Shown piece after piece: positions 431-64,000 of a DNA stretch of 64,000 nt. The translations under genes and the position numbers were made by a program. Source of the DNA: Cymodocea nodosa. Taxonomy: Eukaryota; Streptophyta; Magnoliopsida; Alismatales; Cymodoceaceae. Numbering within the stretch: the stretch's first letter is position 1; every line of letters begins with the position of its first letter. The notes under the pieces are model-generated. The model was not told the DNA's origin and did not search any database. It saw nothing but the letters and a program-made list of their open reading frames with translations. The stretch lies in contig CM072336.1 of NCBI GenBank assembly GCA_036874045.1, positions 28,591,001 to 28,655,000 of the forward strand. The letters are read 5' to 3'.

Positions 431-27449
<27,019 letters not shown>

Positions 27450-36629: not shown

Positions 36630-39600
36630 TTATGTAGTTTTCTTCTTCTTTTGTTGGAGTTTTCTCCACTTTATGTATATCTGATATGAGAGGCCTGTAA
36701 AGACCATTATTACACATCCCCACTGCTTCACCGACATCGGATTGCCACTTAAGAGTGAAGAGATCACAATGCTTACAAACTTCCTTGTGGTTGTGATGGT
36801 AGTGTTTGCAAGGGAACCAAAATTGCTGATTGTAAGGAAGATGAAGTTCTGGCCAATGGCACCACAAATGCAGTAGATGAGAATATCCCAAGTGACCTCT
36901 GGATGCTCCTTGCAAAACTGGATTGCTCCGTAACCACTGCCTTGTGGAAAGCCAAACATATAGACCATGTTATATATTGTGCCCCATAGATTCATTCCCA
37001 GCATTATTTCCCAAGCACCAGTCTTCGGATACCTAAGTATGAATTAGAAAATTTTGGGATACAAATACACAATAGTCAGTTTATAGGCATAACAAAATAG
37101 GCACATCTGTATAAATCACCTTGCAGTAATTGAATCTTGTGTTGCATTTGTGAAGCCATCAAATGCTAAGTTCAGAAAGCATAATCCATAACCAAGTGGA
37201 GCATTTGGATGAGCAAGTTTGCTTATGGTTTTAGAGCTGGTCTGCAATGGGTTCCAAGTGAAAGTAGCAAATGGCAGAGAAGTTAAAACTATTCACTGAA
37301 TCACTGTCTTGCATATCTCTTTGTAATATTAAGCATAATGGTTTTTAAAGACTTTACCTTCAAAAGTGCAAAAGCTGACACCCCACCAGCAACAAGAAAT
37401 GTGCAAATGTATTCTGGAAGGGTATACTTGATGCCATAAACAAGAGTACCCATCAGCATGACTGCACATTGAACAAAATAAAGTTGAAATAAAACACTAA
37501 CAGATCCCTTCAGTTAGAATCTCATTTCAATTAAAGTTCTTTTAAATATATAAACATGGATAACCACGAAACAAAATCTTAGGAAAATAGATGAAGAAAT
37601 GTCCTGCTGATTCCATGGCGATGATTGTGTCTCTGTTGCTAACAAATCTAATGTCATAGAAGCTGCACTAGTATATATGAACACCCATGCAGCAATATTT
37701 TCAGAAGGAAAAAATACACTAACATGTGAAGCATCATGGACATGTGAAAAGTTTTCATAAGGAATCTTGGAATACAAAAAATGGGTGGAAGTAGAATATT
37801 ATTTATAAGTAAACATAAAATCTTTATTTATAGGGACTACACAAAGAAGAACAATATGAAACTAAACTCATATACATCTAAAATCCTGATACATTATTTT
37901 ATCTAACACTTCCCCTAAACCTAGAGGAACATCCAACTTGTAACAAACTTATACATAAACAAATTATAACAAACTAAACAAGAAAATATATAACAAACAA
38001 CCATCAATTAGAAGTAGTAACAATATTGCGTAAGTAAGAAAAATAATTAAACCTTAGCTAACCACACTATAACAAGTGCACACACTATTTCGTTGTTAAC
38101 ATCATTAGACTCAATCAACATACAAACACCTACATATACTAGTAGGTTCACTAACCAACAAGACTGGTCGTGTGGAGAACAAACAACTTTGATGGAACTA
38201 ACAATACTACAATGAGACACACGAGAAAAATATAGATAATTTAATTGAAGATTAATAATGAGGTATTAAACATCTTTTTCTGTCTTGTTTTTCTCTTCCC
38301 TTTTTTCGAGCTTTCATCATTTTTTTGACATTTTATTATGATTTTGTCCCTTCCTCCTTTCTCCATCTTTTTCATTTTCCATTTTTTCTTTCTCTCTCCT
38401 CTTTTTTAATCTCACATGCTCCACACCCTTTTACCTCTTCTTTTAGATTCTTCTTATTCACTTTTTTTCTTTTCTCCCATTCCTTTTTTTCTTTTTCCTT
38501 CCCCTTTCTTTTCCTCTTCCTTTTCTTTTTAGTCTTTTGCCTCTCCATCTACGAAAGGAAGAGATGGGACGGCAGTGTGGAAAGAATGAAAGTAGTGCAG
38601 CAGTGATGTCGAGGTAAGGGAACTCAAGATCAGCATAGGCACTGATGAAGATAGTGTCCCAAAGGTTGAAGGTGAGGTGGGCAGAGTGGAGGAGGTCAAA
38701 GGCAAGTTTCTTGTTGACGGTGGAGGTGAGAAAGGTTATGATCTACTTGCAGGCAAACTAGGTGACAGTAGAGATGTCGCAACTAGGGATTGCTTTATGA
38801 CTTGAGGTACACTCTCAACATGGACAACAGATGGGGCCACTCTCCACAACTCCAATGGAAGATGAAGATGAGATCGAAGAGGAGAGAGGAACCAATGCAA
38901 ACCCAAACCTGGAAAAGAGTACTCATGTTTTTGTACACTTAAGGTAAAGAGAAGATGAGAGACAGGCTTAGACAATTAGACAGAGAGAAAGAGGAGATTG
39001 ATAGCCAATAGGAATGTTAGACATGGTTGAATCCCTTAATAGCAAAGAGAGAGAGAAAAGGGGCAAAGAAGTTCTAACAATAGTACTACTAATGGAACAG
39101 AGGAGGATGGAGGTAGAGGTAGTTGGGAATGAGAAGTAACTTGAATGATTGACTAGAGAAGGACTAGTAACGTTAGTGGCAGAGGAGAGATGAAACAACC
39201 CCTGTAAGGGGTTTGATGATGGCTGGTGGCAGCAATGGTGATTGAGAAGAGGGTGTAACTTGAATTTCCTTCCTCCCTACCTAGATCCCCACACTCTTTG
39301 AACTTTTAAAACTTAAGTTTTAATATAAAATTAAAACATAAAAAATGATTGAAAGTAGAATATTATTCATAAGCAAACATAAGACCACTATTTATAAAAG
39401 CTACACAAAGAGGATAAATATCACTTAAGAAATGTCAAACAACACCTACACACACCTAAAACCCTAATACATTATTGTTTAACAAAGGGCATTGCAAATC
39501 TAATTTTGAATTATACAGAATTATGATAATAAGGTAACATTCAAGAGTTTGAGAATTGTCTTGAGAGGAAAAGTTGAGAATTGTAAATGGAGTCTGTTTA

Positions 39601-48760: not shown

Positions 48761-48796
48761 AGTTTAGGGTTAGGGTTTAGAGTTTAGAGTTTAGGG
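48761..48796 (+). repeat. Degenerate telomere repeat at the LINE-1 3' end
   Basis: Five units of the TTTAGGG type (two perfect TTTAGGG, one TTAGGG, TTTAGAG variants) directly join the poly(T) that is the antisense of the LINE poly(A). Confidence 0.9.
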
Positions 48797-51700
48797 TTTT
48801 TTTTTTTATTATTATATAACTTCTATCCTTTACATTCATTAGAGGATAGTCCTGCAAATAAAAGAGAAACCAAGTAAAACTTGGCTAGGAAGCAAAGTAC
48901 AAGAATTGCTAGAATAAAATGATCATGTGAAGAAATTTTATCGAAAATTTTCTTTGATTCAACCGAAAAAAATTTCGGTGAAACTGAGGTTCCAAAACGG
49001 TCGAACCGTCAAACTGATTAACGGTTGAACCGAAGAGTGAGGAAAAATGATGGCAGATCGGTGAGACCGTACATGGGGTTCGGTTCGATCGGAGAAGACA
49101 CAATCTAACCGTAGATTCTATGCGGTCAAACCGAATCACCGAAGAGTTTGGTAAAACCGTCGAATTAACGGTTAAACCTAAGAACTAGAGATTCTGTTGA
49201 GGAATCGGTGAGACTATATCTGAGGTTTGGTTCAATCGGACAAGACACGGTAAAATCGTAGACCCAAGGCAGTCAAACCGACATATTGATGATTTAGCCG
49301 ATACGACTGAAATAAAGGGTTCAATGTGAACAGGGGTAAGTCGGAAAAGTCTATGATCGCTGTCAAACCTTGAAAATTAGGGGCATTTATTCCGATGTCT
49401 CTTTGCAGGCGGCGAGCGATTGTATCCTCGTAAGTTGTGACATATAGTCTGTAGAACTTGAAATTTAAGCGCTAGATCATTTAATCTCTCGGATATTGAA
49501 GCCTTGGATATAATAAATAATCTAGGATATAATAGAAGAAGAGTTAGGCTTTTTATTGCCAAATATTATCTCACATATGTGTTTCCACAAACTCTAAAGT
49601 GTAATAGGTGTTAGATATTCCAATTGGTAATCCTGTCAATATTGAGAAGATTTTTGAGCCAATTTACCAACTATTTAACAAAATTGTAGTCGTAAAAAAT
49701 ATGTTGGATTGTTTCTGAAGAATTGTTGCAAAAATTGCACATAGATGGAAGATAATATCCAACCTGAGTCCAAATATCATCCACATGAATGATATTTTTG
49801 TTTAATTTCCACAAGAAAATAGATATTTTTGTGGGTATCTGAGTAGACCACATGTATTGGAGCTTATAATCTTGATGGTGATGTACTAGCACTAAATTCC
49901 AAGCTGTTTTGATCGAAAATTTTTGCCTGTGTAGTGCGCTTGAAGCCTGTAATAAATGTTTATAGTTTCTCCAACTACTGTTGAACATTCTATTGATATT
50001 ATTGCTATTGCATCCCTCTGTTATTTGATCCATTGACCCATATATAGCATTAATGGCTTCCGCCCAGATACTTATGTTATCTAGAATTTTTTTGATTTGC
50101 TTTAATCTGAAAGCTGTGATCTGATCTCTCGTATTTCTGATATCAAGTCCATTCTCAGTAATAGGTCTAGCAATTTTACTCCATGAAAGCCAATGAAAAT
50201 TCTTTTTGGTATTGTCTCCAGACCAAAAAAATTTAGCACAAATGGAATTGATTCTGTTTATGATACCCAATGGAAAGGGAATAGCACATAAAGTGTGTAT
50301 AGGGATAGAATTTAGAACATGCTTTATCAGCATTAATCTACCTCCTTGATTGAGAAATCTTGCCTTCCAATCTGCCATTTTATTTTATATCTTATCAATC
50401 AGATATTGGAAAATTTTTATCTTAGGTTGTCCTTTAAAAATAGGACAACCTAAGTAAATGAAAGGCCAATCACTTTGCTTGCAGCCTAGAGTATCTTCTA
50501 TGAATGCTATTCGATGTGCTGGGCTTTTCTTTGAGACAAAGAAGTTGCTTTTTTCATAATTTTTTTTATGGCCTATAGTCATTTCATATTTCTTTAGGAT
50601 ATCTATGACTTTTTGTAGCATTGACTTCCTACCATTTAGGAATAGAAGGGCATCATCTGCAAAAAGCAAGTGAGAAATGCGCCAATGTCTGTTTTGACAT
50701 TTATAAGGTACATAGCTTGGTTCATGTTGCAGCTTGAGGAGTGCTCTACCCCGCAGTTCTTCAGTTATAATAAATAAGAAAGGTGAGAGTGGATCACCTT
50801 ATCGAAGTCCTCTAGATGGATAGAAAAATTGTGTGGGAGCTCCATTAAACAACACCAACGTAGGGTTGTTAGAAATGCAATTTGAGATAATGTTTATGAT
50901 TTTGGAATCAAAACCAAATACTTTGAGAGTATGAAAAATAACATTTCAATTCATTCTATCAAAAGCTTTTTCCATATCTAATTTGACAATAAGATTACCT
51001 CCCCGATGGCCTTGATCAATATATTTAATCAATTCTTGTGCTAAGGAAATGTTATCATGTATGCTTCTTTCCTTGATGAAAGCTGCTTGAGTAGGAGATA
51101 TCATAAGTGTAATCACTTTGGATATTCTATTGGCAATAATTTTGGCAATGATCTTGTAAGAGATATTACATAAGCTGATAGGCCAAAAATTTGCAAAGTT
51201 TCCTGGTTGCTTTCTTTTGGGGATCAAAGCAATATATGTAGTTTTCCATTTATTGTTTAGTTTTGCACCTGTAAAGAAGTACTGTATAGCAGCACAAAAA
51301 TCTGTACTAATTACCTCCTAAAATTTCATATAGAATTCTGTTGTAAAACCATCAGACCCGGGGGCTTTATTATTGAGAAGAGAGGCTAAAACATCTTTGA
51401 TTTCAGCAATAGTAGGAATTTCCCATAAGCACTTATTGTGACTTTCATTTAAAACTCTAGGAATATTATCAAACAAGCTTTGATCCTCATTAACTTGTTG
51501 AAAATGTAATAATTTTGAAAAATAATTTTTACCTTTCTTTTTAATTTGATCTTTGTCTTCACTGTCAGTAGTTCCTACATACAAACATTTGAAATGATCT
51601 TTCAAATTTCTCCGTTTGATAAGTTGATGGAAAAATCTTGTATTTCTATTCAGTTCTAACAGCTAATTAATGTGTGAACTTTGTTTCATTAGACTTGATT

Positions 51701-54325
51701 GTTGGACTGTATTCTTTATAAACTTCTCTTTGAGATTGAAAACAATAGAGTTATTTTCCAACGTACAAGTCTGAGGCTCTTTTTGAAAATTCTACTCTAA
51801 AGAATGAATTTGATTCAATATATTCTGTTCCTCAGTAAAGATATTTCCCACAATATTTCTGTTCCAACTTATGAGAGTTTTCTTAAGTAACTTGAGCTTT
51901 GCACTAAAATTTGTAATTGGATTTTGGAATTGTGCACTGCACCAGACATTGCTGACAATATGATTGAGATCATCATAAGTTAACTAAAAGTTTTTAAATT
52001 TGAATGATCTCAGGCCCCAACCTTTGATATTTTTATTATGAATCCAGATATAAGCATGGTTTGAGCAAATTCGTTCACCATAAGTAATCTCATCTTTGAA
52101 TTGTTCAAACAGAGAGAGATTCATCAAAATGCGGTCTAACCTTGCAAATTTTCTGTTGTTACCTGTTCTATTGTTGCACTAGGAAAACAAGTCTCCAGAA
52201 TGAACGGGCTCTATGAGTTGGTTTTGATTTATGAAATCATTAAATTCCTATCTTGTCGACTGATGGATATGAATATTATTTTGTACTTCATCGTTATGTC
52301 TAGTAACATTGAAATCTCCTCCAATCATCCACAGGCAGTGTGCAGTCTTTGTACTCAATTCAATTAAATAATCTCATAGATTTCTATGAATATTCTGATT
52401 ACATGAAGCATAAATCACCAAAACAACTAAATATTGATAAGAAGAATTTGAAACCTTGTAGGTAATGGCTTGCGGGTGTGACTCCCAAAGCTGTATATCC
52501 AAATTATCAAATTAAAAAGCACAAATCTTTGAATTACCATAATGATAATTCCAATTTATATTGTCTGTAAATTTTTGAGAATCATCTTCGAACATAAAGT
52601 GTTACTGGATGAATATTATTTGTAATTTATGCTTCTCTATAAGACTTTTGACAAAATTGTGGGTTGATTTATTGACCAACTCTCGACAATTCCAAAATAA
52701 TATATTCATTCTTACCGATTCAAAGCCACTTCAATCTTACAAGGACGTAAGACTGATACTCTACGAGGATTCGGAGTCATGAATGAGCTGTAATTTTTTC
52801 TATCTTAGTCGTGTACTTTGTCTTTTGGACAAACAATTCATATTGATTTTCTGTATTGGAGTTTCTGCTTCCTCGTCTGCTGAATCTAACATAAGCTTCT
52901 TTGAATATGAAGATTCTTCATCTGAATTTGATTCCATACCTTTGTTTTTTAATTTTTCTTTTAAAATCTGTAAAGCAAGATTTTGAAAAGACTCTTGTCT
53001 CGGTTTAACTGTAGAAATACCCGGTTGAACCTGATTCAAAGTTGCGTCGAAAGCCTAGTTTGAGGCTTCCGATGCGATCACTGCTATAGCGTGTTGTCAA
53101 GTTGCACTACCAGTTGCGGTTGCGTGTCTAACAACACCTTTGGCAGATTTTCCACCACCTTCTCTAATGCTTCAGCACTGCAAATAGAGGTTGCGTGTCT
53201 GGCATTCTCTAGAGCCCCTGCAGGTGCTAAGGCTACGTGTCTTGGAGAGAGAGACTATGGAACGGTTTGCGATAAATCCTTCTATGTCAGAGGGTTGTCA
53301 GTTGGTTGATTTGATACGATTTTTCCGGTGTTGGCTTGTTGAGAATTTCTGATCTTCGTAGATTTTTTGTGTGAAACCACCTTTCACGTACTGTTATTTC
53401 CATCCGTATTTTTCTAAATTGTCGAAGGACCTGCATTGTCAAAAGCAGCTTTCTTTTTGCATTGTTGAGCTGTGTGCCTGATTTTGCAGTAGTGAGTGTA
53501 GAATTTTGGCTCAAAAGGATATAAAAATTTTTAAACGATGATTTCTCCTCCGTTGTCGATGGTGATTGAGCGTGGGAGAGGCTTCGACAAATCCATCTCA
53601 ACACAGATTGCTAGCAGCCCTAGCCTTGTAAAATTGCAGACGTCTTTATGAGCACAAAGGTATTTACCAAGAAGTTTGGCGATGGATTTTATGGCTCCCG
53701 GAGTGTGGAGATGTGCACGAAGATGAGGTAGGTGAACCCATATTGGAGCCCAAATTGCTTCCATTCTAGGTGAAAAGGAGACCAATGAAAAACAGACATT
53801 CTTCTCCCTTTAATGCTCTAGTTATCCTTAACCCTAAACCCTAAAAAATGTTTATGACTTTGAAAATGTAAAAGTACATACCGGTTATCCAAAGCTGTTG
53901 GAAAAACTCCTTTAGAAATGTTAAGTGTAGCCTTGATACCTTCAAGAATGGAGTGGAGATCAGGCCGTTGACCTGCAAATCTCCCAAGCAGCGTGTGTTG
54001 AAAAGGAGCTGCCAGATTTGAAACTTCTTCATTGGAGAAAGATATTTTGAGTTGGCCTTCCACCGAGATAGGGTCTCTGACCGGGATCTCAGGAAATGAG
54101 GGAGAAACAAAATGCTCACGGATAGTAGTTGCGAAAGAAGGACGAGGTGAGTCCTTTTGCCAAGCACTAGGGTTGACAAAAGGAGGAGGATCTCCTAAGA
54201 TCTCCATCGGAGCAGGTGGCAGATCATCCGCCATGGAATCTCAAGGAAAAAAGCTCCAAATCTCTTGACAAAAAGTCGCCTAGAGAAGCTCTGCTTAGAG
54301 AGACAGTAGAGGGGAAGAATGAGTT
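48797..54325 (-). mobile_element. L1-type LINE copy 1, full-length but dead
   Basis: About 5.5 kb in minus-strand order: 5' leader (54,235-54,325); ORF1 from MADDLPPAPMEILGDPP (54,234), a DUF4283-like gag protein with ENA text PRMEAIWAPIWVHLPHL and a decayed zinc knuckle in which two Cys are replaced (YTHYCKIRHTAQQC); ORF2 endonuclease (about 52,710-51,900); RT (50,946-51,227 TQAAFIKERSIHDN, LDMEKAFDRM; 50,385-50,669 LFADDALLFLNGRKSML); zf-RVT region (49,671-50,378); a 3' region rich in CGGT-N3-ACCG; a stem-loop; and poly(A). Many stops and frame changes in both ORFs show it is inactive. Telomere-type repeat lies at both ends. Confidence 0.9.
53287..54234 (-). pseudogene. ORF1 (DUF4283/zinc-knuckle gag) of LINE copy 1, broken
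   Basis: An RNA-binding gag-like protein of plant L1 elements. It starts MADDLPPAP and contains LDNRYVLLHFQSHKHF (DUF4283 strand-helix region), then after a stop and a frame change FSPRMEAIWAPIWVHLPHLRAH, CNFTRLGLLAICVEMDLSKP, and a knuckle missing two of its ligand Cys. The matching part of copy 3 is intact, which shows the direction of decay. Confidence 0.85.
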
Positions 54326-54336
54326 TGGGTTTAGGG
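54326..54336 (+). repeat. Short telomere-repeat junction (LINE-1 5' end / SINE 3' end)
   Basis: GGGTTTAGGG between the 5' end of LINE copy 1 and the poly(T) of the 5S-headed element. It could also be read as a telo-box in the LINE leader. Confidence 0.75.
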
Positions 54337-54756
54337 TTTTTTTTTTTTTTTTTTAAGGGTCCTCCTTAGACACTCAAACAGCTTGGTGAACACTATGAGT
54401 ATCCTTAGAGGTGATAGAAGGTGAACCTTCATGGACACTCAAACAGCTTGGTATACACCAAGAGTATCCATGAAGGTGATAACATGTGAGTCTCAATGGA
54501 CACTCAAATGACTTGGTATACACTAGGAGTATCCAAGGAGACGAAAGCTTATAGGGAGCCTTGCTAGGCCCACTTTGGTAAGTGGTGTACACAACTACAG
54601 CTTGTCAATGCTTGAGCAGAGCCAACACTACTACTCATAAGCACTACACGAGAACTTCCCAAGTGGTCACCCATCTTGGTTCTACTCCCGCCCAAACATA
54701 GTTAACTCCAGAGTTCTTATAGGAGTCAGTGCTTGGTAGTAGGTGTAAATGCACCT
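54337..54756 (-). mobile_element. 5S rRNA-headed SINE-like element
   Basis: On the minus strand it begins at 54,756 with a 5S rRNA-like head of about 116 nt, then a tail region with three 65-bp tandem units (starting near 54,369, 54,434 and 54,499), ending in 18 A (54,337-54,354). The start at the 5S +1 position, an internal Pol III promoter and a poly(A) end are the features of a 5S-derived (SINE3-type) retroposon. The alternative is a piece of a Cassandra-type TRIM, whose LTRs contain 5S sequence; however the 5S there is preceded by other LTR sequence, and no TG...CA ends were seen here. Telomere repeat lies on both sides. Confidence 0.75.
54640..54756 (-). pseudogene. 5S rRNA-like sequence
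   Basis: By eye about 60 of the 74 bases from AGAACTC to CTCGTGT match plant 5S rRNA, including TTGGGCG (intermediate element) and GATGGGTGACC (C box). The A-box stretch is more changed (GGAGTTAACTATGTT). The first 40 bases align loosely. It is not a functional rRNA gene, and there is no T-run terminator after it. Confidence 0.85.
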
Positions 54757-54772
54757 AAGTTTAGGGTTTAGG
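54757..54772 (+). repeat. Short telomere-repeat junction (SINE 5' end / LINE-2 3' end)
   Basis: AAGTTTAGGGTTTAGG between the 5S head and the poly(T) of LINE copy 2. Confidence 0.85.
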
Positions 54773-57700
54773 TTTTTTTTTGTTTTTTTTAAATAACTTC
54801 TATCCTTTACACTCGTTAGGAGATAATCCTGCAAATAAAATAGGAACCAAAGGAAACTTGGCTAGGAAGCAAAGTACAAGGCTTAAAGTATTGCTAAAAT
54901 AAAAAATGATCATGTGGAGAAATTTTACCGGAAATTTTCTTCGATTAAATCGAAGAAAATTTTGGTGAAACTGAGGTTCCAGAATGGTCGAACTATCAAA
55001 CTGATTAACGGTTGAACTGAAGAGTGTAGAAAAATGCTAACAAATCAGTGAGACTGTACATGGGGTTCGGTCCGATCGGAGAAGACACGGTCTAACCGTA
55101 GACTCTATGCGGTCAAATCGAATCACCGAATAGTTCGATAAAACCTTCGAAATAATGGTTGAACCTAAAAACTAGAAATTTTGTTGAGGTATCGGTGAGA
55201 CCGTGTCTAAGGTTTGGTTCGATCGAACAAGACACGGTCTAACTGTAGGCCCAAGGTGGTCAGACCGACATACTGATGATTTAGCCGGTACCTTCGAAAT
55301 AAAAGGTTCAGTGTGAACAGGGGTAGGTCGGAAAATGTCAGACCTTAAAAATTAGGAGCGTTTATTTTGATGTCTTTTTGCAAGCGGCGAGCAATTGTAT
55401 CCTCGTAAGTTGTGACATATATTCTGTAGAACTTGAAATTTGAGCGTTGGATCATTTAATCTCTCGGATATTGAAGCCTTGGATATAATAAATAATCTGG
55501 GATATAATAGAAGAAGAGTTAGGTTTTTTATTGCCAAATATTACCTCACATCTGTGTTTCCACAAACTCCAAAGTGTAATAACCGTTAGATATTTATAAA
55601 ATTGATGCTGAGAAGATTTTTGGCGTAAATAAAGCTGCTGACTGCTCCAGATTTCCCAGTTGTGGATTGGTGTTGTTGTAATCAATAATCGAAGCCAATT
55701 GATAATATCTTGAATGAATGAGCATGCAAAATAATTAGAGCTTTGTCCAACATTGATTTGCTACCATTGAGAAAAAGTAGAGTATCGTCGGCAAAGAGAA
55801 GATGAGATATTTTCTAATGTCTACCTTGGCATTTATAAGGGACGTAATTTTGCTCCATTTGCATTTTAAGAAAAGCCCTAGATAATAATTCTTTAATGAT
55901 AATGAAGAGAAGAGGAGAAAGAGGGTCACCTTAGCACAGACCTCGGGTTGGATAAAATACTTGAGAGTTAGCTCAATTGAAAAGAAATGAGGTGGGATTT
56001 GACGATATACATCTTGATATTAATTCAATAATATTAGAGTCAAATCCAAAGGCAGCAAGTGTGTTAAAAATAGCCAACCATTCCATTCTATCGAATGCTT
56101 TTTCCATGTCGAGTTTAATAATAAGATTCCCCCCTCGATGACCTTGGTCTATATATTGTATGAGCTCTTGGGTGAGAGATATATTGTCAAATATACTTCT
56201 ATCTTTGATAAAGGTCGCTTGAGTGTTCGATATAATGTTGGGTATGAATTTCGAAATCCGATTAGCTAAGATTTTTGCAATACATTTATAAGAGATGTTG
56301 CATAGGCTAATAGGACGAAAGTCCGAAAAATCCTCTAGTTGTTTCTTCTTAGAGATTAGCGTAATGAAAGTAGCCTTCCATTTATCATTAAGAGAAGATC
56401 CTACGAAGAAACTTTGAACTGCAATACAAAAGTCATTATCGATAATGTTCCAAAAGTGTTTGAAGAATTCAACAGTGAAGCCATCTGGACCTGGAGCTTT
56501 ATTATTAGGAAGGTCAAAGACAACATTCTTGATCTCATTAATAGTGGGAATATCTCATAATTTCTTGTTATCCTCCAAAGTAAGAATAGAAGGAATATTG
56601 TTGATCATACTATCAATCATTTGAGTGTGTTGGGAAGTCAATAATTTGCTGAAATAGTTTTTCCCATTGATTTTGAGTTGATCACAAGTAATATTGGTCG
56701 TGTCTGATTTGAGCATACTCTTAAAATAATCCTTCGTACTTCATCTTTTGATAATCTGATGAAAATATTTTGTGTTGCGATCCATTTCCTTCATCCAATC
56801 AATATGCGTAGATTGGCGGAAAAAGAAGAATTGACGATAATTATTTTTGTGGAGGGCTTCTTAATGATTGTGAAGACAAGATATTTTATCCAAGGTGCAT
56901 CTCATAGTATTGTGTTGGAGATCTAGTTCTAGAGAATTGATTTGGCTAAGTATCTTCTTCTCTTCTTTAAAAATATTACCCACTCTATCAGCATTCTATA
57001 TCTTTAATTTCTCTTTGAGTAGCTTGAGTTTTGCACTGAAATTTATAATAGGATTATTGTAGCTGAGACTATGCCACACTACTTGAATCATATTAGGTAA
57101 ATCTTCATAAGTCGGCCACATATTTTTAAAGTGAAAGGAGGTCGGACCCCATGAGATAGGATTTCTATTCTAAAGGATAATATAGGCATGATTTGAGTTT
57201 ACTCGAGTGCCATAAAATATTTTCTCTGTAATATGAGTTGCCATATGAGAATTGATTAAGATGCGATCTAATCTGGCATACTTTCTGTTAGTACCTGATC
57301 GGTTATTACACCAAGAAAATTGATTCTCATGATGGAAAGGTTCTGTGAGAAGATTGTTGTGAATAAACTCGTTGAAATCATGCATAGCAGATTAGTGGTT
57401 ATGGAGTATATTTTTTGTTTCTCCAATATGCCTAACCACATTAAAATCTCCCCCTAAAATCCAGAATGATTTATCAACAATAGAATTGATCTCTGATAAC
57501 TGATTCCAAAGTTGACGTTTGGTATATTGATTGCAAGAGGCATAAATAACAAAAATAAACAGATCCTTATGGGGAGCATTTAATACTTTGTAAGTACAAA
57601 CTTGAGGATGCATATCTTCTATCTGAAAATTAAAATTATCAGACCAAAGAGTGTAGATTTTGTGATTGCCATAGTGGTAATTCCAGTTGATATTATCAGC

Positions 57701-58026
57701 AAATTTTTGAGTATCTTCTGGCTTCATAAAATGTTCCAATATGCATATTGCCTCTAATTTTTGAGTTCTAATAAGATTCTTGAGATAGATTTGGGTTGAT
57801 TGATTGATCAGCCCACGACAATTCTAGAATAATATATTCATAAAAAATCAAATAAGTAATGAGAGAATTATTGGGAATTGATACTGACATTGCGGGAAGA
57901 TTCGACATCATTAGAAAGCTTACTTTTCTTCTGTCTAAGATGAATGCTTTGCCTCTTTGATTTGGTCACTCTGAAGTCCTGTTGTGAAATAGTATCTTTT
58001 GTATTAGATTGATGGTTATTTGTGGA
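54773..58026 (-). mobile_element. L1-type LINE copy 2, 5'-truncated and internally deleted
   Basis: Minus-strand copy closely related to copy 3. It starts in the 3' end of ORF1 (about 58,026, next to the telomere tract), has the endonuclease (57,170-57,739; LGGDFNVV, RLDRILIN, NSNHAYIIL where copy 3 has NSDHAYIIL), most of RT (down to 55,735; LDMEKAFDRMEW), then jumps to the last ORF2 segment (55,452-55,685; WSLWKHRCEVIFGNKKPN). About 890 bp present in copy 3 are absent at 55,727. The 3' region has decayed CGGT-N3-ACCG motifs, and the poly(A) is 54,773-54,790. Inactive. Confidence 0.9.
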
Positions 58027-58027
58027 A

Positions 58028-58181
58028 AGGGTTAGGGTTTAGGATTTAGGGTTTAGGGTTTAGGGTTAGGGTTTAGGGTTTAGGGTTTAGGGTTTAGGGT
58101 TTAGGGTTTGGGGTTTAGGGTTTAGGGTTTAGGGTTAGGGTTTAGGGTTTAGGGTTTAGGGTTTAGGGTTTAGGGTTAGGG
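58028..58181 (+). repeat. Interstitial telomere-repeat tract, (TTTAGGG)n
   Basis: About 22 units over 154 bp, mostly TTTAGGG with four TTAGGG and single variants (GGATTTA, TTTGGGG). It lies exactly between the 5' end of LINE copy 2 and the poly(A) of LINE copy 3. Confidence 0.97.
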
Positions 58182-58206
58182 TTTTTTTTTTTTTTTTATA
58201 TAAAAT

Positions 58207-58233
58207 CTATCCTTTGCATTCATCAGGGGATAG
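58207..58233 (-). other. Stem-loop just before the LINE poly(A)
   Basis: CTATCC-N15-GGATAG, a 6-bp perfect stem, 9 bp from the poly(A) of copy 3. The same element is at 48,823-48,849 in copy 1 (perfect stem) and near 54,800-54,826 in copy 2 (decayed stem). 3'-end hairpins serve as RT recognition sites in several LINE families; that role here is inference. Confidence 0.75.
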
Positions 58234-58289
58234 TCCTGCTAAAAAGGAGTGTGCCTAAAAAAAGGCATTACAAGACTCAAATTAAATTG

Positions 58290-59300
58290 AGTGAAATCAG
58301 ATGTAAAAATATCAGAAAATACTTTTCGGCTTAACCGAAAATTTCGATCGATTGCCGAGCACTGTGACCGGTCCCACCGGAGAATGTACTGGGCGGTCCA
58401 ACCAAGAAATGGTTATACCGAGAATTTAAAATATAAATCGGTGAAACCGTGTCTGTATTTGCGACCGGTGCAGATCCGGTTTAACCGTTGAAAAGACGGT
58501 CATACCGGAACAAGATCATTCATTCGAGGAAACGGTTTCGGTGTGAACAGAGTTGTCAGCGACCGATACCTGAATTTGGTGTGAACAGAGACTTATCTGC
58601 AATCGAAGCCTGTTGCTTGTCGGTGAGACCGAACTCTGAGATCGGTCCAACCGGAAAACTTTCGGTAGAAGATAAAAGGTCGGTGTGACCGTGTACGGGT
58701 TACGGTGTAACCGGGGCAGACTCGGTTTAGCCTTCGAAAACCGAAGCCAGAGTGTTTCATCCGAAGAGCTGAAATATCGAGCACTGTGACCGGTCCCACC
58801 AGAGAATGTACTGGACGGTCCAACCGAGAAGCAGATGGTTAGACCGAGAATTTAGAATATAAATCGGTGAGACCGTGTCTGTTTATGCGACCGGTGCAGA
58901 TCCGGTTTAACCGTTGAAATGACGGTCATACCGGAACAGAGATTTTTCATTCGAGAAAACGGTTTCGGTGTGAACGCGACCGATACCTGATTTCGGTGTG
59001 AACAGAGACTTATCTGCGACCGATACCGCTTCGGTGTGAACAGAGACTTGTCAGCGACCGATACCTGTTCGGTGTGAACAGGGACTTGTCTGCAATCGAA
59101 GCCTGTTGCTTGTCGAAGATACCGAATTCTGAGATCGGTCCAACTAGAGAATTTTCGGTAGAAGATAAAAGGTCGGTGTGACCTTGTACCGGTTTCGGTG
59201 TAACCGGGGCAGATTCGGTTTAGCCTTCGAAAACCGAAGCAGTGGTTCTTCCGAAGAGCCTTTCCCATGTGAATATGGTTACCCTGTGTACCGAGTTTCC
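58290..59300 (-). repeat. LINE 3' region with CGGT-N3-ACCG palindromes and a 420-bp duplication
   Basis: I count about 13 exact CGGT-N3-ACCG sites (for example CGGTGAAACCG, CGGTTTAACCG, CGGTCATACCG, CGGTGTGACCG) plus many one-base variants. A block starting GAGCACTGTGACCGGTCCCACC occurs at about 58,357 and again at about 58,777, a direct duplication of about 420 bp; the second copy is further expanded by repeated CGGTGTGAACAG units. Confidence 0.9.
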
Positions 59301-59423
59301 GTGTGAACAGAGAAGTGTCAGAACAGCTGTTCTTCGAGAGTAATACTTCCGATGATATGCGACGAGCAAATAATCTCCTCGTTAGTTGTGATTTGTATCT
59401 TGTAAATCTTGAAATCTGCATAA

Positions 59424-60974
59424 TCATTCTCGGATATTGAAACTATCGATATAATAAATAATCTGGGATACGATAGTAGTAATATTAGGCTTTTTATTGC
59501 CGAATATTATCTCACATCTGTGTTTCCACAAGCTCCAAAGAGTGAATGCCGAAAGATATTTATAAAAGTGATTCCGAGAAGATTTTTTTCTTGAATATAG
59601 CTGATGCCTGCTCCATATTTCCCAGTTGTGGATAGGATTTGCTGTGGTCAATAATCGAAGCCATTTGATAACATCTTGAGTGAAAGAGCAATTATAAAAG
59701 ATATGATTGATAGTTTCTGTGTCGTTCCTGCAGAATCCGCATATGGATGGTAATTGGTGTCCCATCTTTTTTCTGGTTTCATCTACTGGAAGAAATTTGT
59801 TTTTGAGTTTCCATAGAAAAACAGAAATTTTTGTAGGTATTCCCGAACTCCAAAAACCCAATAGTTTGTTGTTACAGTGTAGATGATTTCTGATAGAATT
59901 CCAAGCCACTTTGACGGAAAATCTTGGAATCTGCAGAGTTTGATAATATCTATGCCACGTTTTGCCTAATGTTTTGCCTATGTTGCTGTCTCTGTGGATA
60001 TTAAAAATATGGTCCATACTGCCATAGATTGCCTTTATTGCTTCAGCCCGGATGCCATTATTATTGATCAGCTTGTGTATTTGCTTTAGTTGAAATGCTA
60101 CTAGTTGTTCTTTTAAATTTCTGATATCGAGCCTACCTTCGGGAATTGGGGTGGAGATTTTTTCCCATTTGAGCCAATGATAGTTTTTCTGATTACTATC
60201 TCCTGACCAGAAAAAACGAGCACAAATATTGTTGATCTTCTGAACGATTCCACATGGAAGGGGCAAAACTGATAAAGTGTGTATAGGAATAGAATTTAAC
60301 ACATGCTTAATAAGCATTAATCTTCCCCCTTGGCTAAGAAATTTAGCCTTCCAACCTGCAACTTTGTTTTGAATTTTGTCAATGAGATATTGGAAGTATT
60401 TGATACGAGATTGACCTTTGAAAATTGGACAGCCGAGGTAGATGAAAGGCCATTTGCCTTGAGGACATCCAATCATAGTAGATAAAACAATCTTCCTGTG
60501 CTCCGGACTTTTTTTGGAGACATAAAAGTTACTCTTATTGTAGTTGATTTTTTGACCCGTAGATGCTTCATATTGCTGCAAAATAGTTAGAGCTTTGTCT
60601 AACATCGATTTGCGGCCATTGAGAAAGAGAATGGCATCATCAGCGAAAAGCAGGTGAGATATTTTCCAATGTCTTCCTTGGCATTTATAAGGGACATAAT
60701 TTTGCTCCATTTGCATTTTAAGGAGAGCCCTGGATAATAATTCTTCAGTGATAATGAAGAGAAGAGGAGAAAGAGGGTCACCTTGTCGTAATCCTCGGGT
60801 TGGATAAAATACTTGAGAATTAGCTCCATTGAAAAGAACTGAGGTGGGATTCGACGATAGACATCTTGATATTAGATCAATAATAGTAGTGTCAAATCCG
60901 AAGGCAGCAAGTGTGTCAAAAATAGCTGACCATTCCATTCTATCAAAAGCTTTTTCCATATCGAGTTTAATCAT
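59424..60974 (-). CDS. LINE copy 3 ORF2, RT core to C-terminus
   Basis: 516 codons continuing ORF2. RT motifs are LDMEKAFDRMEW, RGLRQGDPLSPLLFI and the catalytic FADDAILFLNGRKSML, then GWKAKFLSQGGRLMLIKHVL. The zf-RVT-like region has FSVKVAWN, TKISVFLWKLKNKFLPV and a CGFCRNDTETINHIFYNC Cys-His cluster; the end is LWSLWKHRCEIIFGNKKPN. No stop occurs over the whole stretch, so decay is recent. No RNase H domain follows. Confidence 0.93.
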   Translation of the reverse strand: MIKLDMEKAFDRMEWSAIFDTLAAFGFDTTIIDLISRCLSSNPTSVLFNGANSQVFYPTRGLRQGDPLSPLLFIITEELLSRALLKMQMEQNYVPYKCQGRHWKISHLLFADDAILFLNGRKSMLDKALTILQQYEASTGQKINYNKSNFYVSKKSPEHRKIVLSTMIGCPQGKWPFIYLGCPIFKGQSRIKYFQYLIDKIQNKVAGWKAKFLSQGGRLMLIKHVLNSIPIHTLSVLPLPCGIVQKINNICARFFWSGDSNQKNYHWLKWEKISTPIPEGRLDIRNLKEQLVAFQLKQIHKLINNNGIRAEAIKAIYGSMDHIFNIHRDSNIGKTLGKTWHRYYQTLQIPRFSVKVAWNSIRNHLHCNNKLLGFWSSGIPTKISVFLWKLKNKFLPVDETRKKMGHQLPSICGFCRNDTETINHIFYNCSFTQDVIKWLRLLTTANPIHNWEIWSRHQLYSRKKSSRNHFYKYLSAFTLWSLWKHRCEIIFGNKKPNITTIVSQIIYYIDSFNIRE

Positions 60975-61084
60975 AAGATTTCCCCCTCTATGGCCTTGGT
61001 CTATATATTGTATGAGCTCCTGAGTAAGAGATATGTTGTCAAAAATACTCCTGCCTTTAATAAATGCTGCTTGAGTATTAGATA

Positions 61085-62680
61085 TTATGTTGGGTATGAT
61101 TTCCGATTAGCTAAGATTTTGGCAATACATTTATAAGAGATGTTGCAAAGACTAATAGGACGAAAGTCTGAAAACTCCTCTGGTTGTTTCTTCTTTGGAA
61201 TTAATGTAATGAAAGTAGATTTCCATTTATCATTCAGAGAAGATCCTGAGAAGAAACTTTGAACTGCTAGACAAAAGTCGTTACCAATAATATTCCAGAA
61301 GTGTTTGAAGAATTCTGCAGTGAAGCCATCAGGACCTGGAGCTTTGTTATTGGGAAGATCAAATACAACTGTTCTGATCTCATTGATGTTGGGAATATCC
61401 CATAGTTTTCTGTTATCCTCCTGATTAAGAATATTGGGAATATTGCTGATCATACTATCCATCATATGCGTATGTTGGGATGTCAGTAAATTGCTGAAAT
61501 AATTTTTTCCTTTGATTTTGAGTTGATCACAAGAAAGATTGGACATATCTGATCTAAGCATACTCTTGAAGCAGTCCTTCGTGCTTCTTCTTTTGATAAT
61601 TTGATGAAAGTATTTTGTGTTTCGATCCATTTCCTTCAACCAATCAATGTGTGTAGATTGTCTAAAATATAGATATTGCCGATAATTGTTTTTTCGCAGG
61701 TCTTCTTGATAATTGTGAAGACAGGAAAGTTTCTCCGAGGTGCTACCATTGAGTTGGAAGTCCTGTTCCAGAAAATTTATTTTTCTAATTATCTGCTTTT
61801 CTTCTACAAAGATATTGCCCACTCTATCTGCATTCCAAATCTTTAGTTTTTCTTTGAGCAGCTTGAGTTTTGCACTAAAGTTTGTAATAGGATTCTGATA
61901 TGTGAGACTATGCCATACCGCTTGAATCATATTTGGTAGATCTTCATAAGTCAGCCACATATTTTTGAAGCGAAAAGCGGTTGGCCCCCAAGAGATAGTG
62001 CTCGTATTCTGAAGGATAATATATGCATGGTCCGAGTTTACTCGATTCCCATAAATTATATCTTCTGCTATATGTGTTGCCATCTGTGAATTTATTAAGA
62101 TTCGATCTAGTCTGGCATACCTTCTATCAGATTCTGATCTGTTATTGCACCAAGATAATTGATTCCCGTGATGAAAAGGTTCCGTGAGGAGATTGTTATG
62201 AATAAATTCATTGAAATCCTGCATAGCTGATTGTTGATTATACAAAATATTTTTGGTTTCTCCAATATTTCTGACTACATTGAAATCTCCCCCTAAAATC
62301 CAGCTTGCTTTATCTGCAATCGAATTGATCTCTGATAATTGATTCCAGAGTTGACGTCTGGTATATTGGTTGCAAGAGGCATAAATAACCGAAATAAATA
62401 AATCTTTGTAAGTGGCATTTGATACTTTATAAGTACAAACTTGAGGATGTATATCTATAATCTGAAAAGTAAGATTATCCGACCAGAGAGTGCAGATTTT
62501 GGAATTACCATAATGATAATTCCAATTAATATTATCAGCAAATTTTTGAGTATCTTCAGGCTTCATAAAATGTTCTAATATGCATATTGCCTCTAATTTT
62601 TGAGTTTTGATAAGATTTTTGAGATATATTTGGGTTGATCGATTGATCAGCCCACGGCAATTCCAAAATAATATATTCAT
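61085..62680 (-). CDS. LINE copy 3 ORF2, endonuclease and start of RT
   Basis: 531 codons from MNILFWNCRGLINRS. Apurinic-type endonuclease (residues 1-225): NCRGL, CILEHFMKPED (catalytic Glu), LGGDFNVVRNIGETK, RLDRILINS and NSDHAYIIL (the SDH triad end). After a spacer with WLKEMDRNTKYFHQ come the RT N-terminal motifs NNKAPGPDGFTAEFF and LIPKKKQPEEFSDFRPISL. It ends early at a frame break near 61,100: compared with copy 2 (GGTATGAATTTCGAAATCCG near 56,250), 7 nt are missing. The rest of ORF2 continues in another frame at 60,974. Confidence 0.93.
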   Translation of the reverse strand: MNILFWNCRGLINRSTQIYLKNLIKTQKLEAICILEHFMKPEDTQKFADNINWNYHYGNSKICTLWSDNLTFQIIDIHPQVCTYKVSNATYKDLFISVIYASCNQYTRRQLWNQLSEINSIADKASWILGGDFNVVRNIGETKNILYNQQSAMQDFNEFIHNNLLTEPFHHGNQLSWCNNRSESDRRYARLDRILINSQMATHIAEDIIYGNRVNSDHAYIILQNTSTISWGPTAFRFKNMWLTYEDLPNMIQAVWHSLTYQNPITNFSAKLKLLKEKLKIWNADRVGNIFVEEKQIIRKINFLEQDFQLNGSTSEKLSCLHNYQEDLRKNNYRQYLYFRQSTHIDWLKEMDRNTKYFHQIIKRRSTKDCFKSMLRSDMSNLSCDQLKIKGKNYFSNLLTSQHTHMMDSMISNIPNILNQEDNRKLWDIPNINEIRTVVFDLPNNKAPGPDGFTAEFFKHFWNIIGNDFCLAVQSFFSGSSLNDKWKSTFITLIPKKKQPEEFSDFRPISLCNISYKCIAKILANRKSYPT

Positions 62681-62706
62681 ATAAAATCAAGAAGGAGGAA
62701 AGTGAA

Positions 62707-64000
62707 TTATTGAGAAATGCTGCTGTTGCTGTGGGAAGATACAGCATCATTAGAAATCTTGCTTTTTTTCTGTCGGAGACGAATGCTTTGTCTCTTTGAT
62801 CTGGTTATTCTAAAGTCCTGCTGTGAGATCGTATCTTCGGTGTCAGATTGATGGTTGCTTGAGGAAAAAGAGTCGTCTTCTGAGCTGGGTCCTTCTGACA
62901 AGTGCTTCAGCTTTCCTTTTAAAATTTCTAAGGACATTTGATTTCGTAGAATGCCTGAATCTTTCTGATTTAATAAGATATGTTCTGTTAATGGATGCTT
63001 GTCTGGTAAGTGTTCCGCCGATAGCTGTTCATAAGGTTGCTCGAGTTCTACGGAAGGAGTGACAGCTTTATTTGATTTCCTGTTGCGTGTAACCAGTCTC
63101 CATTCTGAGTCAGTCAAGGCTTGCAGCTGAACCGACGGTTCTGTTTCATTTGGCAGGTTGATTTGATAACTCGGTGAGTCCGGCGAACTTTTTCCTCTTT
63201 GTCTTGTTGTATTTTCCGGTTCCCCCGGGATTTTGTCAGATATGCATATCGGTTCTTCTGTCGATAGGTTGACTGCTTTGTCAGGCGTAGCATACTGTGC
63301 GTCCTTGAAGTTGACAGATTTTTTTATTTCTGTATTTTTCTGTCCGACGGTGGGATTGTCAGGTATGTTTTTCGGTTTCACCGGTAGAATTGCGGTCTTG
63401 CCGATCTAGTCTGACACCATAAGCTGTCTTTCCTTCGGTTGGACCGATGATCCTATCGGTTCGACCGGTGATTCTGTCAGTACAGCGTCGGAGATTGCAG
63501 CTTTTTCTTTCGGTTGTACCGTAGTATTCTCCGGTTCAACCGATCTTTTGTCAGACCTGCCGATTTTTTCTTTTGCGATTTTTGCGTTCACACCAACCCT
63601 GTTCGTTGGTGCCTTTTGCGTGTAAACCGCTTCTGCCAGTGCTTCCGACGGCTGTTCTTGATTATTTTTCCTTTTGCTTTTTCGATTTACAACTTGCCAT
63701 TGTGAATTGCCCAGCGGGTCTTTGCGTGGATTAATGACAGGTGCGGTACTGGCAGGAACAGTATTGTCAGACAGAGCTTTCTTTCTGCATGTTGGGGTAG
63801 TGTGCCCGATTTTGCAGCAAAATTCACAGAATTTTGGTTCAAACGGGTATATGACCTTTTGATTGATGATTTCTCCACCATTGTCGATGACGATGGAGCG
63901 GGGAAGAGCTTTTGAAAGATCCATTTCAACGCAGATGGCGGTAAGACCAGGACGTGTAAAATTGCAGACATCACGATGTGAACAGAGGTATTTCCCTAGA
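62707..64000 (-). CDS. LINE copy 3 ORF1, gag-like RNA-binding protein (partial, one stop)
   Basis: The N-terminus lies beyond the right edge. The visible frame starts LGKYLCSHRDVCNFTRPGL (end of DUF4283), then EMDLSKALPRSIVIDNGGE and an intact zinc knuckle CEFCCKIGHTTPTC (CX2CX4HX4C, near 63,800). A Ser/Pro/Glu-rich linker follows, then a basic C-terminus (TRSKRQSIRLRQKKSK). One in-frame TAG lies at 63,406-63,408; the same frame continues open to 62,707. The linker around the stop is encoded by repeated CGGT-N3-ACCG DNA, giving VEPxxxSVQPKE-like repeats. Confidence 0.85.

What the first reader, a model, noticed from the sequence alone, without database searches (positions are those of the whole stretch)
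48761..58197. LINEs and a SINE all inserted, in one orientation, at telomere-type repeats
Three LINE copies and one 5S-headed element sit head to tail. Every 3' end reads poly(A) directly followed by CCCTAA(A) units (48,797; 54,337; 54,773; 58,182), and every visible 5' end also abuts such repeat (54,326; 54,757; 58,028). On the plus strand the joins are GGGTTT followed by more T, which is what target-primed reverse transcription predicts if the endonuclease nicks TTT^AGGG and the poly(A) RNA anneals to the TTT end. L1 endonucleases prefer TTTT^AA, so a shift to telomere repeat is plausible. Insect TRAS/SART and algal Zepp are known telomere-linked LINEs; I do not know of a described plant L1 with this specificity.
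Basis: partly seen in the sequence, partly recalled or inferred. Interest (0 to 1): 0.88.

Follow-up and report, generated by a model that had tools for sequence, protein, structure and literature searches.

The report
Retrotransposon arrays inside plant telomere repeats
In this flowering plant, ordinary-looking LINE and 5S-headed SINE jumping genes have repeatedly inserted, nearly always facing the same way, into the TTTAGGG repeats near many chromosome ends, much as in silkworm telomeres, which I did not find described in land plants.

Summary
The window is the last 64 kb of a 28.655-Mb contig. In the same assembly the exact string A9-CCCTAAACCC occurs 63 times; 60 lie within 87 kb of a contig end, on 25 ends, and 60 of these 60 have the 3' side facing inward. 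Of 75 LINE 3' ends examined, 40 of 42 near contig ends are followed by CCCTAAA units and 0 of 33 deeper ones are. Different 5'-truncation points, full 5' ends and SINE 5' ends abut telomere tracts, so one duplicated insertion cannot explain it. The stronger claim, a telomere-specific LINE, is not supported: telomeric and internal copies are interleaved on the tree, and internal copies show ordinary target duplications with an L1-like TT^R nick. GGGTTT^AGGG fits that nick, so general L1 machinery with a strong bias to chromosome ends fits best. Undecided: nicking inside tracts versus priming from short ends, and how far recombination between ends multiplied the arrays. New variant of a known kind.

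The parts
58184..64000 (-). LINE3: plant L1-type LINE, 3' part (end of ORF1, EN, RT, zf-RVT, 3' region, poly(A)); 5' end lies beyond the contig edge
   Evidence: Pfam Exo_endo_phos at 61085-62686; RVT_1 and zf-RVT at 59424-61106; 0 or 1 in-frame stop per match against five outside relatives, and a frame change between the EN and RT pieces; 3' junction An-CCCTAACCCTAAA
58028..58184 (+). telomere-type tract, about 23 units of TTTAGGG/TTAGGG between LINE3 and LINE2
   Evidence: Tandem Repeats Finder period 7, 23 copies, 92% matches
54774..58027 (-). LINE2: 5'-truncated LINE (starts at coordinate 1135 of the LINE3 sequence held), also with an internal deletion relative to LINE3; 3' poly(A)
   Evidence: 84% to LINE3 over 2.3 kb, 86% to LINE1 over the last 833 bp; 5' end abuts the tract directly
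54760..54773 (+). short telomere-type tract TTTAGGGTTTAGG between LINE2 and SINE
54338..54759 (-). 5S-headed SINE with three about 65-bp tandem units and a poly(A) tail; the first three sense bases (54757-54759) before the 5S match are of unsure origin
   Evidence: Rfam 5S_rRNA 54638-54756; 65-bp repeats; 1098 first-look candidates in the genome, 40 scored
54327..54336 (+). telomere-type stub GGGTTTAGGG between SINE and LINE1
48797..54326 (-). LINE1: near full-length, decayed copy of the other ORF2 lineage; 3' poly(A)
   Evidence: matches of the LINE3 RT and EN pieces with 4 and 9 in-frame stops
48761..48799 (+). degenerate telomere-type tract between LINE1 and the unique chromosomal DNA on the left

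Best explanation
An L1-type plant LINE family (at least two ORF2 lineages) and a 5S-headed poly(A) SINE, presumably moved by the LINE, repeatedly retrotransposed into TTTAGGG repeats near chromosome ends and built head-to-tail arrays there. Steps: (1) the LINE endonuclease nicks at TT^R, which in telomere repeat means GGGTTT^AGGG on the G strand (inferred from target duplications of internal copies and from junction phase); (2) the TTT end anneals to the poly(A) of LINE or SINE RNA and primes reverse transcription, so the element's 3' end faces the centromere (the structure is shown, the priming inferred); (3) the C strand has no TT, so only one orientation is possible (deduction); (4) telomere repeat lies distal to the element and later insertions add outward (weakly supported). 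The same elements also insert at ordinary TT^R sites elsewhere; an extra factor, unknown, such as open telomeric chromatin or a tether, concentrates them at the ends.
For: 40 of 42 LINE 3' ends near contig ends are followed by telomere units against 0 of 33 deeper ones (Fisher p = 3e-19). 60 of 63 exact A9-CCCTAAACCC sites are near contig ends, 60 of 60 of these in the inward orientation, on 25 ends; none for the reversed string. Six distinct 5'-truncation points, six LINE 5' ends that look complete, and SINE 5' ends at ten or more loci abut tracts within two bases. Phase 37 of 40 An|CCC, p = 9e-7. Internal LINEs: target duplications of 13-15 bp starting AA in 6 of 25 loci (L019, L020, L022 with the same flank as L020, L027, L045, L051; in the other 19 none was recognised, the 5' end often lying outside the DNA held). 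SINEs: of 20 fetched out of 46 matches, 4 of 4 near contig ends have telomere repeat on both sides and 0 of 16 internal ones do; of the 16, 14 have a duplication, 13 of these starting AA after C or T. (CCCTAAA)3 occurs 6709 times, roughly 47 kb or 0.013% of the assembly, yet 40 of 75 examined 3' ends lie in such repeat.
Against: Tracts between elements are short (median 54.5 bp over 32 loci by a strict count; up to 378 bp by the looser count), while the one terminal telomere read is 4.4 kb; random nicking in a long tract predicts wider spacing. Target duplications cannot be seen inside repeats, and their first A's are ambiguous next to poly(A). Two copies near contig ends have no telomeric 3' flank (L116, L121). 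Two pairs of loci are segmental copies (L013/L014, L017/L018). The queries were telomeric copies and only 40 of 68 and 40 of 81 candidates were scored, so the 40 of 75 share is biased upward. Only one contig end (C1 right) was read to its terminal repeat. SINE mobilisation by this LINE is inferred from the shared poly(A), target and arrays.
Confidence: 0.6

Rival explanations
1. End attachment: LINE and SINE RNAs are reverse transcribed from the free 3' G-rich end of critically short telomeres without a nick, then telomerase adds new repeat on top. The arrays grow outward one element at a time, as with HeT-A/TART or endonuclease-independent human L1.
For: Gives the same orientation and An|CCC phase. 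Explains the short tracts between elements against a 4.4-kb terminal tract. Within an end, the distal copy has the longer poly(A) in 16.5 of 22 pairs and the purer tract in 16.5 of 22 (ties counted half, pairs not independent). In the window the distal LINE3 shows 0-1 in-frame stops per match to five outside relatives, the middle LINE2 0-10 and the proximal LINE1 0-10 (3 or more in every long match).
Against: Internal copies show that these elements use nick-type insertion with target duplications. No correlation of poly(A) run with distance to contig end over all 40 (Spearman -0.03, p = 0.83). Telomere shortening in this plant is untested.
Confidence: 0.25
2. Recombination between chromosome ends: a few original insertions into telomere repeat were copied to other ends by exchange or break-induced replication within the repeat tracts, which keeps orientation and telomeric flanks.
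For: L013/L014 and L017/L018 share both sides at 97-99.7%, and L017, L018, L031 and L058 share downstream DNA at 97-99.6%. Chromosome ends are known to exchange (recalled).
Against: Different 5'-truncation points, SINEs and LINEs of two lineages, each joined to tract. Near-identical LINEs L058, L060, L064 and L065 (96.8-98.7%) have different downstream neighbours, although exchange within a tract could also do that. Telomeric and internal copies are interleaved on the tree, suggesting several separate entries (starred branches alone force 3 changes).
Confidence: 0.12
3. Unbiased insertion: general L1 insertions happened to hit an old interstitial telomere tract, and the window merely caught one such place.
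For: The same elements insert elsewhere at ordinary sites.
Against: The pattern repeats on 25 contig ends while perfect telomere repeat is about 0.013% of the assembly.
Confidence: 0.02
4. Assembly error: repeats at contig ends were wrongly joined.
For: Several contig lengths are round numbers, the window's contig included, and a stretch of N of about 7.5 kb lies below the C1 terminal telomere (a gap or a withheld stretch).
Against: The same precise structure, in the same orientation, at many ends; many junctions lie within a few hundred bases of each other in unbroken sequence.
Confidence: 0.01

Closest known systems
TRAS1 and SART1 of Bombyx (LINEs in TTAGG telomeres)
   Same: LINEs sit between telomere repeats in telomerase-type telomeres. 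[quoted passage not shown]
   Different: Here the element is a plant L1-type LINE (DUF4283 ORF1, zf-RVT), it also inserts at non-telomeric sites, and a SINE shares the arrays. That TRAS/SART belong to the R1 clade is recalled.
Zepp of Chlorella (LINE accumulated at telomeres)
   Same: LINE in the green lineage at chromosome ends (named in passages of PMC10088271 and title in its reference list; L1-like clade recalled).
   Different: Green alga, not a land plant. Zepp's nested end structure is recalled; no sequence comparison was made here.
MoTeR (Pyricularia) and FoTeR (Fusarium)
   Same: Telomere-associated non-LTR elements; FoTeR and MoTeR1 have the 5' end toward the chromosome terminus (PMC12857005, passages read), as here.
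   Different: They use a restriction-like endonuclease, and no FoTeR was detected at non-telomeric loci (same passages); here the endonuclease is of the Exo_endo_phos type and 35 of 75 examined copies are not in telomere repeat.
Human LINE-1, including endonuclease-independent insertion at telomeres
   Same: L1-type ORF2 (best solved match 8sxt, E 5.7e-16), poly(A), T-rich nick (recalled for human L1); Morrish et al. 2007 seen only as a reference title in PMC4700185.
   Different: In humans telomere insertion needs special mutant cells (recalled); here arrays stand near many natural chromosome ends.
SINE3-type (5S-headed) SINEs of animals
   Same: Full-length 5S rRNA head.
   Different: Poly(A) tail, plant host, L1-type target (SINE3 traits recalled). 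The papers naming 5S-derived SINEs in the listing concern lepidopteran insects, a fungus and one general essay; only titles and abstract starts were seen.

Membership tests
Plant L1-clade LINE | Apurinic-type endonuclease and reverse transcriptase in ORF2, zf-RVT, ORF1 with DUF4283 | tested here: met
   PF03372, PF00078, PF13966 in the window (EN and RT now in two frames); PF14111 in ORF1 of the C1 copy; the 120 relatives listed of 1394 have 28-52% identity, the named ones plants except one bird record, P0026. No tree with other LINE clades was built.
Plant L1-clade LINE | Poly(A) tail and target duplications of about 10-20 bp at T-rich nick | tested here: met
   13-15 bp duplications starting AA at 6 of 25 internal LINE loci (L019, L020, L022 with the same flank as L020, L027, L045, L051); none recognised at the other 19
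Telomere-specific LINE (TRAS/SART-like behaviour) | Inserted within telomere repeats, at one phase, one orientation | tested here: met
   Phase 37 of 40; orientation 32 of 32 and 60 of 60
Telomere-specific LINE (TRAS/SART-like behaviour) | Insertions confined to telomere repeats | tested here: not met
   35 of 75 examined 3' ends are not in telomere repeat; labels interleaved on the tree
TRAS/SART (R1 clade) | R1-clade ORF2 | tested here: inconclusive
   Relatives and domains are those of plant L1; no tree with R1 elements was made
SINE with 5S head | 5' part from 5S rRNA, short, target duplications, many dispersed copies | tested here: met
   (1098 first-look candidates, 40 scored); duplications at 14 of 16 internal copies
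SINE with 5S head | Moved by the LINE of the same genome | tested here: inconclusive
   Shared poly(A), target phase and arrays only
Chromosome-end maintaining retrotransposon (HeT-A/TART-like) | Replaces telomerase or attaches to free ends | not testable with these tools
   C1 ends in 4.4 kb of TTTAGGG, which suggests that telomerase works; the search for the telomerase family did not complete

The most novel reading that the evidence does not exclude
A land plant keeps a mixed telomere: telomerase repeats plus L1 LINE and 5S-SINE units that are added to eroded chromosome ends by priming from the G-strand, so that general, non-site-specific retrotransposons act as a backup for chromosome-end growth, with telomeric copies serving as active sources (two internal SINEs carry a CCCTAAACCCTAA stub inside their poly(A) tail).
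Probability: 0.22. Interest if true: 0.9.

Novelty: new variant of a known kind. Interest (0 to 1): 0.72.

Why it matters
Telomere-invading retrotransposons were listed, in the passages that I read, for insects, a fungus, Giardia, rotifers, a lizard and one green alga (PMC10088271), not for land plants. Here is a land-plant case in which the elements are not specialised: the same lineages also jump elsewhere. That makes it possible to ask how telomere targeting begins: by sequence match of a general TT^R endonuclease, by open or free chromosome ends, or by a tether. It also gives a plant system in which telomere repeat and retrotransposons share chromosome ends.

Tried and rejected
Segmental duplication of one insertion: rejected for the window (LINE1 and LINE3 65% identical in ORF2) and for the genome (different truncation points), though L013/L014 and L017/L018 are duplicates.

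A separate telomere-specific clade: not supported by the data at hand (16 telomeric and 9 internal rows interleaved, 379 of 500 shuffles as low). Limits: 320 columns, 11 of 26 inner forks drawn open, and the rows are the loci plus two C1 copies and LINE3. Of these 33 rows, 8 with under 120 aligned residues were left out, among them window LINE2; the loci, apart from the C1 copies and LINE3, were not added.

Age gradient over all copies: no correlation of poly(A) run with distance to contig end; only the within-end comparison leans that way.

Viral contigs: no match. Protein searches did not name the species; the best UDP-galactose transporter matches are about 80% identical, the named ones from several angiosperm families, so I only say flowering plant.

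Unanswered: the genome server was busy for many calls. Never answered: the LINE-motif-plus-telomere pattern, the wrong-orientation control pattern and the telomerase family. As a smaller stand-in for the orientation control, no A9-N(0-6)-GGGTTTAGGG was found in the 249,821 bases of loci held (overlapping stretches counted). The C-type count printed there (242) is inflated by overlapping offsets and is not used.

Rows left out of counts: L054 and L056 (inner repeats) and L063 (runs into N), L130 (not a 3' end). The other rows are further pieces of copies already read or stretches that do not reach the 3' end. Not all copies were listed: the two LINE searches scored 40 of 68 and 40 of 81 candidates, the SINE search 40 of 1098.

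Full report
WHAT IS IN THE WINDOW. Reading the minus strand 5' to 3', the right 15 kb of the window is LINE3, poly(A), a 157-bp telomere-type tract, a 5'-truncated LINE2, poly(A), CCTAAACCCTAAA, a 5S-headed SINE, poly(A), CCCTAAACCC, LINE1, poly(A), a degenerate telomere-type tract, then unique DNA. The 5S head is a full-length Rfam match. Telomere-type 14-mers are far above chance (20 against 0.03). LINE3 has an Exo_endo_phos endonuclease, reverse transcriptase and zf-RVT; a related copy on contig C1 has ORF1 with DUF4283. LINE1 and LINE3 share only about 65% of ORF2 bases, while LINE2 is 84% like LINE3 in ORF2 and 86% like LINE1 over its last 833 bp, so subfamilies seem to have exchanged 3' parts, and the cluster is not one insertion duplicated.

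WHERE IT IS. The assembly (374.6 Mb, 28 contigs, unnamed flowering plant) places the window at C2:28591001-28655000; C2 is 28,655,000 bases long, so the window ends at the contig end. On the plus strand TTTAGGG runs rightward, which is the direction toward a right chromosome end. C2 itself ends inside LINE3, not in telomere repeat.

I searched the assembly with the 300-bp 3' ends of LINE1 and LINE3 and read what follows the poly(A); 30 loci, 15 followed by CCCTAAA units, 15 not; 30 loci, of which 27 are usable 3' ends, 17 telomeric, 10 not; 19 further loci, 18 usable, 8 telomeric, 10 not. Together 40 of 75; this includes the window's three. Of the 42 within 70 kb of a contig end 40 are telomeric (the other two: L116, whose poly(A) joins another LINE's 5' end directly, and L121); of the 33 that are 234 kb or more away none is (Fisher p = 3e-19). 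The first 32 telomeric ones stand on 20 contig ends and 32 of 32 point their 3' end to the centromere, while 10 of 25 internal ones do; the 8 added later are all plus at left ends and minus at right ends. The share 40 of 75 is biased, because the queries were telomeric copies and only 40 of 68 and 40 of 81 candidates were scored.

A SEARCH WITHOUT LINE BIAS. The exact string A9-CCCTAAACCC occurs 63 times; its reversal occurs 0 times. 60 of 63 are within 87 kb of a contig end, on 25 ends, and 60 of 60 have the same inward orientation. Two of the three internal ones are SINE copies with CCCTAAACCCTAA embedded in the poly(A) tail, the third matches neither LINE nor SINE. The embedded stub looks like a transcript that ran from a telomeric SINE into its flank and was then inserted elsewhere (inference). 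The opposite-orientation control did not complete by the server; in the 249,821 bases of loci held it occurs 0 times.

INDEPENDENT INSERTIONS. After the tracts come SINE 5' ends (at ten or more loci), LINE 5' ends that look complete (L010, L021, L025, L055, L060, L066), or LINE bodies cut at different points: LINE1 coordinates 155, 1803, 3486, 4218, and LINE3 coordinates 1135 (the window's LINE2) and 1882, each starting within two bases of the tract. One LINE body after a tract is inverted (L049). Two pairs of loci are segmental copies (L013/L014, L017/L018), and some downstream DNA is shared between L017, L018, L031 and L058, so recombination also takes part.

A CHROMOSOME END. Contig C1 ends in 4.4 kb of TTTAGGG (28860004-28864414). 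Below it is a stretch of N of about 7.5 kb, and then an array: a LINE (0 in-frame stops in the ORF2 matches), tract, three SINEs separated by tracts, tract, a LINE 94.8% like window LINE3, tract, SINE, all in the same orientation. Direct contact of the outermost LINE with the terminal telomere is therefore not shown, and this is the only contig end that I read to its terminal repeat.

HOW IT WORKS. Of 25 internal LINE loci, 6 show target duplications of 13-15 bp beginning AA after C or T (L019, L020 and its flank-sharing copy L022, L027, L045, L051); in the other 19 none was recognised, the 5' end often lying outside the DNA held. For SINEs I fetched flanks of 20 of 46 matches: 4 of 4 near contig ends lie in telomere repeat, 0 of 16 internal ones do; of the 16, 14 have a duplication, 13 beginning AA after C or T. 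Next to poly(A) the exact start is ambiguous, but the AA is present on the 5' side too. This is an L1-like nick TT^R on the primer strand. Telomere repeat offers GGGTTT^AGGG on the G strand and no TT on the C strand, which gives the one orientation seen. The phase agrees: 37 of 40 junctions read An|CCC, two TCC, one CCT, against 4/7 for a random phase (p = 9e-7; 35 of 38, the call's second figure, p = 2e-6). So the site is ordinary for this endonuclease; the density at ends is not: perfect (CCCTAAA)3 matches (6709) amount to about 47 kb, 0.013% of the assembly. A tree of the C-terminal RT part shows telomeric and internal copies interleaved in both lineages (25 copies). Hence a general LINE with a strong bias for chromosome ends, not a telomere-specific clade.

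WHAT IS OPEN. Spacing is short (median 54.5 bp over 32 loci by a strict count that stops at variant units; up to 378 bp by the looser count). Distal copies have longer poly(A) in 16.5 of 22 within-end pairs and purer tracts in 16.5 of 22. Both hint at outward growth on short ends, that is, priming from free G-strand ends; but the overall correlation of poly(A) run with distance is nil. Telomerase could not be tested. SINE movement by this LINE is inferred.

LITERATURE. PMC10088271 (passages) lists telomeric retrotransposons in insects, Giardia, Chlorella, Pyricularia, Anolis and rotifers; no land plant appears in these passages. PMC2868851 (passages): TRAS1 inserts between T and A of TTAGG. 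PMC12857005 (passages): FoTeRs have the 5' end toward the terminus and were not detected at non-telomeric loci. The passages that I saw of PMC6431679, PMC4700185, PMC8621592 and PMC9498494 mention no land-plant LINE inserted in telomere repeat.

Noticed in passing
G000 C3:15542550-15543050 (L131) and C17:6057391-6057891 (L133): Internal SINE copies whose poly(A) tail contains CCCTAAACCCTAA, as if a telomeric SINE had been transcribed into its flanking repeat and re-inserted elsewhere.
   Followed up: partly
L019 and L051; L125 and L131: Different LINE or SINE copies inserted at the identical position of what seem to be dispersed repeats (GTCTTGACTTTCATTCC; TTGTGGGTCARCTTTAAY), hinting at recurrent hot sites.
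   Followed up: no
window 53826-53849: A small telomere-type stub (TTAACCCTAAACCCTAAAAAA) inside LINE1 ORF1, antisense to it, with GTTATCC on both sides about 60 bp apart.
   Followed up: no
window 3318-6042, minus strand: A decayed, distant L1-type LINE (25-50% protein identity in the matched pieces); the pattern scan of the window finds no telomere repeat there.
   Followed up: partly
G000 C10:23869 (L049): A LINE3-type body in opposite orientation follows the telomere tract, possibly an inversion during insertion.
   Followed up: no
G000 C12:21906352 (L116): A LINE poly(A) joined directly to another LINE's 5' end with no telomere unit between.
   Followed up: no
window 54774-58027: LINE2 combines LINE3-like ORF2 with a LINE1-like 3' end, as other copies do, pointing to exchange of 3' parts between subfamilies.
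   Followed up: partly
window 14461-15670 and 18483-19067, minus strand: Copia-type reverse transcriptase/integrase remnants (the second matches gag_pre-integrs by Pfam; the first is judged by eye).
   Followed up: no
window 36633-37043, minus strand: Exon of a UDP-galactose/UDP-glucose transporter gene; best database matches about 80% identical.
   Followed up: partly
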